42,950 bases of DNA from a virus, in IMG/VR virus record IMGVR_UViG_3300010151_000027, positions 1 through 42,950 of that record, one strand, 5' to 3'. Numbering within the stretch: position 1 is the first letter of the stretch; each line of letters starts with the position of its first letter. Below, in pieces: positions 1,303-20,998 of this stretch. Below the pieces are notes generated by a model. It was not told where the DNA came from, did not search any database, and was given only the letters and a program-made list of their open reading frames with translations. The position numbers and the translations under genes were made by a program.

Positions 1303-1320
1303 TAAAAAATAATCTGAAAA

Positions 1321-1395
1321 TAATCATGTAAATAGTTGATTAATTGTAAAATATTCATTATATTATAAATCAATTAATAATTGTTTACATGATTA
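1321..1395. repeat. Long AT-rich imperfect inverted repeat (stem-loop)
   Basis: The 133-base gap between genes (1303-1435) holds a large inverted repeat. Outer arms TAATCATGTAAA (1321-1332) and TTTACATGATTA (1384-1395) are perfect 12-bp complements, and an inner pair ATTAATTG (1339-1346) / CAATTAAT (1371-1378) continues the stem. The loop is about 24 bases. No T-run follows the right arm, so it does not look like an intrinsic terminator. It could be an RNA 3'-end stabiliser, a processing site, a protein-binding site or a replication-related element. Confidence 0.65.
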
Positions 1396-1435
1396 ATAAA
1401 GATTAATCTGTAAAAAATAAAAAGGATTAAGTAAT

Positions 1436-1985: not shown

Positions 1986-1996
1986 ATATTTATTAA
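1985..1996 (+). promoter_or_regulatory. GATATTTATTAA motif upstream of tmRNA
   Basis: A variant of the recurrent ATATTTAT(A/T) motif lies directly after the preceding stop codon and about six bases before the first stem of the tmRNA acceptor piece. It is a plausible start signal for the tmRNA precursor, inferred from position and similarity only. Confidence 0.35.
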
Positions 1997-2001
1997 TGAC
2001 C

Positions 2002-2220
2002 GCTAATACTTTTATTAGCTGCTCTTTTGGACCCGGGTTCGATTCCCGGCATCTCCACTACTAAGTATTATTACAAAATGGGGATGACTGGTATTGACAG
2101 AGAGATAAGGATAGAAGGAAGGTTACGTATAACTGGCGAAACAGTTCACATGGCGATGGCTGCTTAACAGAGCACTCTGATCCAACGGTTGGAAGAGCAC
2201 GCCGTTAAAGCTCTGGAGGT
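2002..2220 (+). ncRNA. ssrA: Circularly permuted tmRNA (two-piece ssrA)
   Basis: The tRNA-like 3' half precedes the 5' half, the permuted order known from alphaproteobacteria and cyanobacteria. Acceptor piece: hairpin GCTAATA-CTTT-TATTAGC (2002-2019), GGAC (2029-2032), T-stem CCGGG/CCCGG (2033-2037, 2045-2049) with loop TTCGATT, acceptor strand CATCTCC (2050-2056), discriminator A2057, then CTA rather than an encoded CCA. After a 22-base spacer the coding piece starts with GGGGATG (2080-2086), which pairs with all seven acceptor bases, including a G-U at the third position that matches the alanine identity pair. A tag frame ends ATG-GCG-ATG-GCT-GCT-TAA (stop 2165-2167), likely tag (A)GETVHMAMAA. 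Helix CAGAGC/GCTCTG (2168-2173, 2210-2215) encloses a possible pseudoknot (CCAA/TTGG with AACGG/CCGTT). The 3' limit is approximate. Role: rescue of stalled ribosomes with degradation tagging. Confidence 0.88.
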
Positions 2221-2732: not shown

Positions 2733-2735
2733 ATA
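2728..2735 (+). promoter_or_regulatory. TATAAATA, T4-type late promoter box for hsp20
   Basis: This is an exact match to the T4 late-promoter consensus TATAAATA on the coding strand, overlapping the end of the preceding gene and the left arm of the inverted repeat, about 70 bases before the hsp20 start. In T4 this box is read by gp55 with the sliding clamp; the window encodes a gp55-like protein. Function here is inferred. Confidence 0.5.
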
Positions 2736-2746
2736 CAGGTAGGTTT
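2731..2746 (+). repeat. Left arm of 16-bp inverted repeat around hsp20
   Basis: AAATACAGGTAGGTTT is repeated in exact inverted form at 3242-3257, on the other side of the hsp20 gene. With a two-base gap the match continues through ATTACT, giving about 22 matched bases. No transposase is present between the arms. Confidence 0.85.
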
Positions 2747-2806: not shown

Positions 2807-3238
2807 ATGACAACAATCTTGAATGAACGCGTCTTTCCGACGGATCTACTTTTCAGAAACTTTTTCGATAACAACTCTATGTTTGAATCATATGTAGAGA
2901 ATAAACCAAATTATCCAGTTGATATTAAAATGGGAGATGAATGTCTCTGTTTTGATATTGCATGTGTTGGGTTAAAGAAAAAAGATATTGACATTACAAC
3001 TGAGGGTAACTTACTTAAAGTTGTATATAAGAAGCCATCTATTGAATCTAATCCATCAGATATCGATGCTTGTGAGTATATACATAAAGGTATTACAAGA
3101 AAAAGCTTTGATATGGGATGGAAGATAAGTCCAAAATACGACTTAACTGCTATAGAAGCTCACATGGAGGCTGGGTTATTAACATTAACAATCCCTACAT
3201 CAGAGGATTGTTTACCAAAAACGGTTATAATTAAGTAA
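2807..3238 (+). CDS. hsp20: Small heat-shock protein (Hsp20 / alpha-crystallin family)
   Basis: The 143-residue protein has the small heat-shock layout: a short hydrophobic N-terminal arm (residues 1-35, with LLFRNFFDNN), an alpha-crystallin domain from about residue 36 (YPVDIKMGDECLCFDIACVG), the hallmark AHMEAGLLTLTIP near residues 122-134, and a C-terminal I-x-I type end (KTVIIK). The family holds unfolding proteins in a refoldable state without ATP, as oligomers in the cytoplasm. Hsp20 genes are known in marine T4-like phages. The start has a clear Shine-Dalgarno (AAGGAG) and the leader contains a T4-type late box. The gene sits alone between 16-bp inverted repeats, just downstream of tmRNA. 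The likely role is to protect phage or host proteins during infection. Confidence 0.9.
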   Translation: MTTILNERVFPTDLLFRNFFDNNSMFESYVENKPNYPVDIKMGDECLCFDIACVGLKKKDIDITTEGNLLKVVYKKPSIESNPSDIDACEYIHKGITRKSFDMGWKISPKYDLTAIEAHMEAGLLTLTIPTSEDCLPKTVIIK

Positions 3239-3241
3239 TAA

Positions 3242-3257
3242 AAACCTACCTGTATTT
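3242..3257 (-). repeat. Right arm of 16-bp inverted repeat around hsp20
   Basis: AAACCTACCTGTATTT is the exact reverse complement of 2731-2746 and begins four bases after the hsp20 stop codon. Together the arms bound a 527-bp segment that contains only hsp20 and its leader. Confidence 0.85.
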
Positions 3258-5903: not shown

Positions 5904-6314
5904 ATGAGAAAGTTAATTTTAACAATTACATTAGCATGTGCGTCATTAATGGCGACACAAGCACAAACAAAAGGTGACTGGTACGTTGGTACTGGTGATG
6001 TTGCAAACGTTGCTTGGACTGAGTGGTCAGTAACACCTACAGTTGGATATGCAGTGACAGACGCATTAGTATTAGGAGCATCTGTTTCACAAGTAGCTGA
6101 CGAATCTATGAATGTAGATGTGAATGTGAGATATTTCTTTAGAGGATATTTCGCATGCCTAGAATCTAACTTAAATTTGGATACTCAGGACATGAGTATC
6201 GGTGTTGGTAAAATGTTTACATTACGCGAAGGTGTATATGTAGACCCAAAAATCGTTTATGATACGGAGATGCAAACTACGAACCTAGGTTTAGGGTTCG
6301 GGTTTAGATTCTAA
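5904..6314 (+). CDS. Secreted outer-membrane beta-barrel-like protein, 136 aa
   Basis: A classic signal peptide (MRKLILTITLACASLMATQAQ) ends at TQAQ|T, followed by KGDWYVGTGDV and alternating hydrophobic/polar strands (VTPTVGYAVTDALVLGASVS; VNVRYFFRGYFACLESNLNL). The C-terminus GLGFGFRF ends in Phe, the hallmark of beta-barrels inserted by the BAM machinery. Mature length is about 115 residues, enough for a small barrel of six to eight strands. Host small OMPs of Bacteroidetes look like this, and similar proteins occur in marine phages. It may alter the infected cell's surface, for example in superinfection exclusion or envelope stress, but this is inference. It has a strong Shine-Dalgarno and a structured leader. 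Confidence 0.75.
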   Translation: MRKLILTITLACASLMATQAQTKGDWYVGTGDVANVAWTEWSVTPTVGYAVTDALVLGASVSQVADESMNVDVNVRYFFRGYFACLESNLNLDTQDMSIGVGKMFTLREGVYVDPKIVYDTEMQTTNLGLGFGFRF

Positions 6315-20557: not shown

Positions 20558-20998
20558 ATGAGTCATTGGTTATATAAAGGGGAGATACTAAAAAAAGCTC
20601 CAGAAGAATATTTCGGTTTTGTTTATTTAATAAAAAATAAGAAAACAGGTAAGAAGTATATTGGTCGAAAGTATTTCGGGACAACTCGTCGTGTTAAAGT
20701 TAAAGGTAAGAAGAGACGTAAAGTTATACGGAAAGAATCTGATTGGGCAATATATGAAGGTTCATCTAAATCACTAATACAAGATATACAAAAATTAGGT
20801 AAGAATCATTTTGAGTTTACTATCTTAATAATGGGTGAAACTAAAGGTCAAGTTAATTACTTAGAAGAAAACATTCATCATAAATTTCACGTATCAGCTA
20901 ACAAAGACTTCTACAATGACTGTATAGGTCCACGTAGATTTGCGAAAGTTCGATTTGATGAAAGTGTAGCTAAAAAAATTAACGATATAGTTGTTTAG
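20558..20998 (+). CDS. GIY-YIG family endonuclease (Seg/homing type)
   Basis: The 146-residue protein has the GIY-YIG core: F21-V22-Y23 in GFVYLIKNKKTGKK and Y34-I35-G36 in KYIGRKYF, with R37 next to it, and the later acidic helix NYLEENIHHKFHV (about residues 100-112) supplying the metal-binding Glu. The N-terminus resembles phage 'MSHWLYKG...' Seg-like proteins. A basic insertion (RRVKVKGKKRRKVIRK) likely contacts DNA. Such free-standing enzymes cut DNA and often spread themselves between phage genomes; some act in genome exclusion. It starts two bases after a tail gene and lies between tail and replication genes. Confidence 0.85.
   Translation: MSHWLYKGEILKKAPEEYFGFVYLIKNKKTGKKYIGRKYFGTTRRVKVKGKKRRKVIRKESDWAIYEGSSKSLIQDIQKLGKNHFEFTILIMGETKGQVNYLEENIHHKFHVSANKDFYNDCIGPRRFAKVRFDESVAKKINDIVV

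What the first reader, a model, noticed from the sequence alone, without database searches (positions are those of the whole stretch)
2002..2220. Circularly permuted, two-piece tmRNA gene in a T4-like phage
The tRNA-like 3' half lies upstream of the 5' half with a 22-base spacer. All seven acceptor pairs form between GGGGATG and CATCTCC, including a G-U at position 3. The T-arm is perfect, a tag frame ends in ...MAMAA-stop, and a helix plus possible pseudoknot follow the tag. CTA replaces an encoded CCA. Phage tmRNAs are uncommon, and a permuted one would point to host lineage and to phage control of ribosome rescue.
Basis: partly seen in the sequence, partly recalled or inferred. Interest (0 to 1): 0.87.

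Follow-up and report, generated by a model that had tools for sequence, protein, structure and literature searches.

The report
Compact two-piece tmRNA in Bacteroidota-type phage
The window holds a real gene for a split 'ribosome-rescue' RNA (tmRNA), one of a large virus-only family that is smaller than usual, lacks a normally near-universal fold (pseudoknot 1), and sits in phages that probably infect Bacteroidota, whose known members carry an unsplit tmRNA.

Summary
Window 1997-~2216 (+) is a circularly permuted tmRNA gene: Rfam RF04321 (tmRNA_permuted), 69.8 bits against a gathering score of 47, E=1.5e-11. Two-piece tmRNA in marine T4-like phages is already published (Melnitz, PMC9004378), so the broad idea is not new.

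New here:
(1) The window belongs to a distinct family: 109 IMG/VR stretches, 77 distinct full sequences. Cells gave no genuine member: in a scan of ~85,000 prokaryote genomes the only true match is a phage-like contig binned in a MAG.
(2) Acceptor stem, T-stem, a long P2 joining the two pieces, and a pseudoknot after the tag covary. G3-U70 holds in 77/77 members and an in-frame stop in 77/77.
(3) There is no room for pseudoknot 1: 56-62 nt (window 55) from the coding-piece 5' end to the resume codon, against 81-90 nt in most other viral permuted genes.
(4) Relatives bearing this tmRNA encode the T9SS type B domain typical of Bacteroidota; crAss-like and Chryseobacterium phages carry similar compact permuted genes.

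So the permuted form does not point to an alpha/beta/cyanobacterial host. Expression, processing and function are untested.

The parts
1986..1993 (+). ATATTTAT, late-promoter-like element of this phage
   Evidence: 9 of 16 copies lie in the 4.5% intergenic part of the window, all upstream of genes (binomial p 6e-9); TATTTAT at the same distance upstream of the tmRNA in 64 of 77 distinct family members
1997..2057 (+). acceptor piece (3' tRNA-like half) from P2 strand to discriminator A; both termini inferred
   Evidence: RF04321 match; alignment A1
1997..2001 (+). P2 distal strand UGACC, pairs with 2121-2125
   Evidence: covaries: 3 of 4 main pairs with changes on both sides; UGAUC/GAUCA, UGAAC/GUUCA, GAGUC/GACUC in relatives
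2009..2015 (+). P2 middle strand CUUUUAU, pairs with 2111-2117
   Evidence: 98.6% of cells paired, 4 of 7 pairs changed on both sides
2022..2026 (+). P2 proximal strand CUCUU, pairs with 2100-2104
   Evidence: 95.7% of cells paired, 4 of 5 pairs changed on both sides
2033..2049 (+). T-arm, 5 pairs and a 7-nt loop
   Evidence: 100% of cells paired, 2 pairs covary
2050..2056 (+). acceptor stem 3' strand CAUCUCC
   Evidence: 99.2% of cells paired; pair 3:70 is G-U in 77/77
2058..2079 (+). intervening segment, 22 nt, begins with CTA where CCA would be
   Evidence: CTA 47, CAA 20, CCA 7, other 3 of 77 distinct members
2080..2216 (+). coding piece (5' tRNA-like strand, P2, tag, H5, pseudoknot); 3' end not determined
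   Evidence: RF04321; alignments A1 and A2; model R1
2131..2146 (+). hairpin AACUG-gcgaaa-CAGUU around the resume codon
   Evidence: RNAalifold finds it on A2; AACC/GGUU in L046 and L047, which were found without any tag constraint; AACG/CGUU in MA9V-3
2135..2167 (+). tag reading frame GETVHMAMAA-stop; resume codon GGC preceded by UAACU
   Evidence: in-frame stop directly after Ala-Ala in 77/77 using UAA 52, UAG 21, UGA 4; ARAGORN tags GEQVE[ML]AMAA in relatives
2161..2174 (+). H5-like helix UGCU-uaacag-AGCA with the stop codon in its loop
   Evidence: GCU/AGC 21, GCC/GGC 18, GCG/CGC 3 exact pairings of 77; in the RNAalifold structure
2184..2214 (+). H-type pseudoknot: S1 2184-2188/2202-2206 (AACGG/CCGUU), S2 2194-2198/2210-2214 (AGAGC/GCUCU)
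   Evidence: S2 appears as GAAGC/GCUUC, GAGGU/ACCUC, GGGAU/AUCCC, GAGAC/GUCUC in relatives; mean pseudoknot score 14.7 against 9.7 for shuffles

Best explanation
This is a functional, phage-encoded two-piece tmRNA of a compact, pseudoknot-1-less, virus-borne lineage carried by T4-like phages of Bacteroidota. Proposed working: the gene is transcribed from the phage's own late-type promoter. Host RNase P cuts before G2080; host 3' processing removes the sequence after A2057 and the host CCA enzyme adds CCA, because CUA is encoded. The pieces stay joined by the acceptor stem and the long P2. G3-U70 directs charging with alanine. Host SmpB delivers the RNA to stalled ribosomes, translation resumes at GGC, and the nascent chain gets A-GETVHMAMAA for degradation by host proteases. 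The benefit would be keeping ribosomes free during late gene expression. Shown: gene order, conserved and covarying helices, conserved tag frame, Ala identity pair, no SmpB gene in the family records searched, promoter-motif enrichment, Bacteroidota marker in relatives that bear the gene. Inferred: transcription, cleavage, charging, tagging, timing, benefit.
For: RF04321 69.8 bits over GA 47. 109 viral stretches found by the family tag pattern against two in the genome collection: a chance match in a transketolase gene and a phage-like contig binned in a MAG. Covariation far above shuffles and slid controls and P2 permutation test 0/10,000. Stop codon 77/77 with three stop types, and synonymous third-position variation in the Ala codons. 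In-frame longer tags of about 36-37 codons in L046, L047, L053. G3-U70 77/77. Late-type motif at fixed distance in 64/77. No SmpB in 12 family or related records, while 10 of 14 control genomes ring. Host: T9SS type B domain in G001 and in L276's record; nearest isolates by terminase, portal and baseplate include Flavobacterium phage immuto, 45-56%; compact permuted tmRNA also in Chryseobacterium phage MA9V-3 and crAss-like phages.
Against: No RNA or protein data. PK1 is reported as needed for tagging by E. coli tmRNA, though a stable hairpin can replace it (PMC3968760), so a PK1-less form might be weak. ARAGORN does not call the window copy. An equally good nearest isolate is Microcystis phage Mel-JY01, so the host is not certain. 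Neither Mel-JY01 nor immuto has the gene, and 24 related viral records, all possibly fragments, lack it. The window itself has no T9SS domain. Shine-Dalgarno-like sites are frequent in the window but rare in immuto. Part of the tag conservation is due to the search pattern; stops, third positions and members are not.
Confidence: 0.74

Rival explanations
1. An ordinary two-piece tmRNA captured from an alphaproteobacterial (SAR11-like) host, as proposed for Melnitz; the phage infects an alphaproteobacterium.
For: Same gene order; Melnitz tmRNA matches alpha_tmRNA at 106.7 bits and is in a marine T4-like phage (PMC9004378).
Against: Alphaproteobacterial genes score 115-163 bits with RF04321 against about 60-70 for this family. 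The best older clade model for the window is beta_tmRNA at 47.5, below its cut-off of 84. The coding-piece model R1 finds nothing in 190 alphaproteobacterial genomes (no positive control in that set). No pseudoknot 1 and a GE... tag instead of ANDN.... T9SS domain and Flavobacterium/Chryseobacterium/crAss links.
Confidence: 0.1
2. A decoy or inhibitor: the phage RNA binds host SmpB, EF-Tu or stalled ribosomes and blocks or redirects host rescue, rather than rescuing.
For: Loss of pseudoknot 1; a tag-less phage tmRNA (DS6A) inhibits endogenous tmRNA in E. coli (PMC11915505). No phage SmpB.
Against: Tag frame and in-frame stop kept in 77/77, synonymous changes, and H5 pairing kept around the stop: selection acts on the translated tag, which a pure decoy does not need.
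Confidence: 0.1
3. A decaying passenger gene with no function in the phage.
For: Present in only part of the related phages; window copy is missed by ARAGORN.
Against: Strong compensatory change in P2, acceptor, T-stem and pseudoknot, and stop 77/77.
Confidence: 0.03
4. A regulatory RNA or leader of the downstream gene that only borrows a tRNA-like fold.
For: The tmRNA lies directly upstream of an ORF (2244 or 2250) with a ribosome-binding site at 2236-2242.
Against: The neighbouring gene is not tied to the tmRNA: records of its relatives L202-L208 have no tmRNA match.
Confidence: 0.03

Closest known systems
Two-piece tmRNA of Methylophilales phage Melnitz and pelagimyophages (PMC9004378)
   Same: Permuted tmRNA gene in a marine T4-like phage; no phage SmpB match.
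   Different: Melnitz matches alpha_tmRNA (106.7 bits) and has a glutamine riboswitch, a long intervening segment, an encoded CCA and an ANDN...ALAA tag. The window has none of these (CCA is encoded in only 7 of 77 family members) and no room for pseudoknot 1.
tmRNA_permuted RF04321, built from alpha-, beta- and cyanobacterial permuted tmRNAs (PMC11915505)
   Same: Gene order, acceptor stem, T-arm, tag after P2; scores above the cut-off.
   Different: About half the score of true alphaproteobacterial genes; 55-62 nt instead of about 84 nt before the resume codon.
tmRNA annotated in crAss-like phages (cr10_1, cr50_1, cr53_1, cr114_1, cr125_1) and Chryseobacterium phage MA9V-3
   Same: Permuted order; compact 5' region; CAUAACUGGC or AAACGG-type resume context; in three crAss-like copies the same ACGGC...GUCGUA pseudoknot.
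   Different: Different tags (GNNFVTDYT..., GNVIDINKYVAKLEVAA), longer intervening segments (a tRNA gene or an endonuclease gene in some), different phage type; coding-piece similarity alone is weak (E 0.008-0.1).
Cellulophaga phages phi38:1 and Calle_1
   Same: Bacteroidota phages with tmRNA.
   Different: Standard, unpermuted form (RF00023 86-88 bits).

Membership tests
Permuted (two-piece) tmRNA, RF04321 | Covariance-model score above the gathering cut-off | tested here: met
   69.8 bits, cut-off 47
Permuted (two-piece) tmRNA, RF04321 | 3' acceptor half lies upstream of the 5' half, short intervening segment | tested here: met
   2033-2057 before 2080-2167, 22 nt between
Permuted (two-piece) tmRNA, RF04321 | Alanine identity pair G3-U70 and T-arm | tested here: met
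   G-U in 77/77; T-stem 100% paired
Permuted (two-piece) tmRNA, RF04321 | Tag reading frame ending in Ala-Ala-stop | tested here: met
   GETVHMAMAA-stop; stop 77/77
Permuted (two-piece) tmRNA, RF04321 | P2 helix joining the pieces | tested here: met
   0 of 10,000 permutations reach own-pair energy
Permuted (two-piece) tmRNA, RF04321 | Cleavage into two mature RNAs, CCA addition, Ala charging, SmpB binding, tagging | not testable with these tools
   needs RNA and protein experiments
Typical bacterial tmRNA with pseudoknot 1 | Pseudoknot 1 between P2 and the resume codon | tested here: not met
   9 nt between P2 (ends 2125) and resume codon 2135 in the window; 5' end to resume codon 56-62 nt in ARAGORN-called family members against 81-90 nt in most other viral permuted genes. 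PK1 present in nearly all tmRNAs compared in PMC1168896
alpha_tmRNA RF01849 | Score above cut-off for the alphaproteobacterial model | tested here: not met
   not listed for the window even at E 1; best older-model hit is beta_tmRNA 47.5, cut-off 84
Melnitz-type tmRNA with glutamine riboswitch | Glutamine riboswitch (RF01739) at the 3' part | tested here: not met
   no match in 1400-2900 at E 1; found in Melnitz
Bacteroidota phage (host group) | Host-specific marker in tmRNA-bearing relatives | tested here: met
   TIGR04131 62.5 bits in G001, 41 bits in G043, cut-off 35; none in the window itself

The most novel reading that the evidence does not exclude
Phages of Bacteroidota carry a fourth, virus-borne lineage of two-piece tmRNA that arose by its own circular permutation, is shared by T4-like and crAss-like phages, and works without pseudoknot 1 although the hosts keep a one-piece tmRNA.
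Probability: 0.5. Interest if true: 0.78.

Novelty: new variant of a known kind. Interest (0 to 1): 0.64.

Why it matters
Two-piece tmRNA is described as confined to three bacterial lineages and mitochondria. A large virus-only family in phages of a fourth phylum would mean permutation happened, or spread, in viruses. It would also provide a natural tmRNA without pseudoknot 1, an element that lab work on E. coli found to be needed but replaceable. A cultured phage with a similar compact gene (Chryseobacterium phage MA9V-3) makes the question testable now. It also warns against reading host lineage from tmRNA gene form.

Tried and rejected
Megablast of window 1-25000 against phages: no match. 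blastn of the window tmRNA against phages: only short T-arm matches. L311, a genome hit of the tag pattern, is a chance match inside a transketolase gene. R1 hit in immuto L310 37621 (21.3 bits) has no acceptor piece and overlaps the end of an annotated CDS; treated as chance. Cellulophaga phages were first taken as permuted relatives; they carry the standard form. Tag strings of Bacteroidota cells recalled from memory (GE...) could not be found in the paper library, so descent from a Bacteroidota tmRNA is only a lead.

Full report
1. Observation. Rfam RF04321 (tmRNA_permuted) matches 1998-2167 over its full length with 69.8 bits, cut-off 47, E=1.5e-11. ARAGORN at default does not call the window copy, but in relatives it calls the permuted class in 89 of 112 loci with tags such as GEQVEMAMAA, which fixes the resume codon at GGC (2135 in the window; tag GETVHMAMAA).

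2. Prior art. PMC9004378 reports a two-piece tmRNA in the marine T4-like phage Melnitz and counts 53 two-piece genes among 133 phage tmRNA structures. PMC11915505 describes RF04321 and lists 79 unique phage tmRNA sequences. So permuted tmRNA in a phage is, as a kind, known.

3. A distinct family. Among those hits a subset shares a short 5' region and tags like GEQVELAMAA. A tag-based pattern finds 109 stretches in IMG/VR and, in the ~85,000-species genome collection, only a chance match in transketolase and a contig binned with a Nitrosopelagicus MAG. That contig gives a full permuted match (59.7 bits); its other ORFs look phage-like by eye, but I did not scan them against a family library. 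104 members have full context, 77 of them distinct. 51 non-redundant members are aligned as A1.

4. Structure. With the window-derived structure, 89.4% of cells pair (shuffles 80.4 +/- 0.4), 191 cells change on both sides (62.9 +/- 5.7), and sliding partners by one column drops pairing to 43-47%. The control is imperfect because the structure comes from one of the sequences and the sequences are related. A second test avoids the alignment: cofolding P2 strands from the same member gives -16.6 kcal/mol on average, strands from different members -12.8, and none of 10,000 permutations reaches the own-pair mean. P2 runs through three blocks; examples of compensation are UGACC/GGUCA, UGAUC/GAUCA, UGAAC/GUUCA, GAGUC/GACUC. 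After the stop there is an H-type pseudoknot with a conserved first stem and a strongly varying, compensated second stem. The stop codon sits in the loop of an H5-like helix with GCU/AGC, GCC/GGC and GCG/CGC versions. RNAalifold on the coding piece alone finds the resume hairpin, H5 and stem 1 of the pseudoknot.

5. Tag. The stop follows Ala-Ala in frame in 77/77, as UAA, UAG or UGA; the third positions of the Ala codons vary. Several other tag positions were fixed by the search pattern and are not counted as evidence. L046, L047 and L053, found without any tag constraint, keep the frame through an insertion giving tags of about 36-37 residues. G3-U70 is kept in 77/77. CCA is encoded in only 7 of 77; CTA (47) and CAA (20) dominate, so CCA addition would be needed.

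6. No pseudoknot 1. From the first G of the coding piece to the resume codon there are 55 nt in the window and 56-62 nt in family members called by ARAGORN, against 81-90 nt in most other permuted viral genes checked and about 84 nt in an alphaproteobacterial gene. After P2 only 9 nt remain in the window. PMC1168896 finds PK1 in nearly all tmRNAs, with Oenococcus oeni as an exception and mitochondrial tmRNA lacking it. PMC3968760 says tagging needs PK1 but that a hairpin can replace it. A hairpin around the resume codon is the candidate replacement here; that is inference. Other short forms exist (L034, L081, L101, L075), so compaction may have happened more than once.

7. Host. The window shows T4-like terminase, portal and baseplate proteins. 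Nearest isolates for three proteins are Microcystis phage Mel-JY01 (49-58%) and Flavobacterium phages immuto (45-55%). The tmRNA-bearing record G001 (portal 56% to the window) encodes a T9SS type B sorting domain, 62.5 bits, and L276's record one of 41 bits, cut-off 35. T9SS is known from Bacteroidota (general knowledge). Chryseobacterium phage MA9V-3 and several crAss-like phages carry permuted tmRNA with a similarly compact 5' region. The control Bacteroides genome rings with the standard model but not the permuted one. Shine-Dalgarno-like sites are frequent in the window (42%, shuffled 14%) and rare in immuto (5%), which argues somewhat against a typical Bacteroidota translation context. 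I put the Bacteroidota host at about 0.8.

8. Relation to other lineages. Alphaproteobacterial genes score 115-163 bits with RF04321; this family about 60-70. The coding-piece model R1 finds no match in 190 alphaproteobacterial genomes, though that search has no positive control. R1 hits three crAss-like coding pieces at full length with weak E-values of 0.008-0.1 while one chance hit scores 0.006, so homology with the crAss copies is likely from position and shared motifs but not proven by this score. An independent permutation in Bacteroidota phages is my most novel reading, not a result.

9. Expression. ATATTTAT occurs 16 times in the window, 9 of them in the 4.5% intergenic DNA upstream of genes including the terminase (p 6e-9). 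It lies at 1986, directly before the tmRNA, and TATTTAT is at the same distance in 64 of 77 members. I read it as this phage's late promoter.

10. Mechanism. See best explanation. Gene structure and selection on it are shown; transcription, cleavage, charging, SmpB use and tagging are inferred from tmRNA biology. No SmpB gene was found in 12 family or related records, so host SmpB would be used.

11. Verdict. Confirmed observation, partly supported interpretation, new variant of a known kind.

Noticed in passing
L046 1733-1940, L047 1932-2138 (-), L053 5908-6112: Family members with an in-frame insertion that lengthens the tag to about 36-37 residues while P2, stop and pseudoknot are kept.
   Followed up: partly
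L354 765-836; hits H76, H77 (cr56_1, cr113_1): crAss-like permuted tmRNAs with a tRNA gene (cr114_1) or an annotated endonuclease gene (cr56_1, cr113_1) lying between the two pieces.
   Followed up: no
L213, L268, L269, L274, L291 and others: Some family members have a 65-87 nt intervening segment containing an inverted-repeat-like insertion (ACTATATTCATTTAGATATAAT...).
   Followed up: no
window 2733-2746 and 3239-3255: Inverted repeat ATACAGGTAGGTTT / AAACCTACCTGTAT on both sides of an Hsp20-like gene (2807-3238).
   Followed up: no
window 1303-1435: Gene-free AT-rich stretch with an inverted repeat (AATCATGTAAA ... TTTACATGATT).
   Followed up: no
window 5904-6314: Small outer-membrane beta-barrel-like protein with a signal peptide ending ...MATQAQ (weak Pfam OMP_b-brl, E 1.5e-4, below the curated cut-off).
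   Followed up: partly
window 20558-20998: Protein matching PHROG 447, labelled NAD synthetase but also matching homing-endonuclease families.
   Followed up: no
L034, L081, L101, L075: Other compact permuted viral tmRNAs with canonical ANDN-type or GEK tags and 57-69 nt before the resume codon; possible separate losses of pseudoknot 1.
   Followed up: partly
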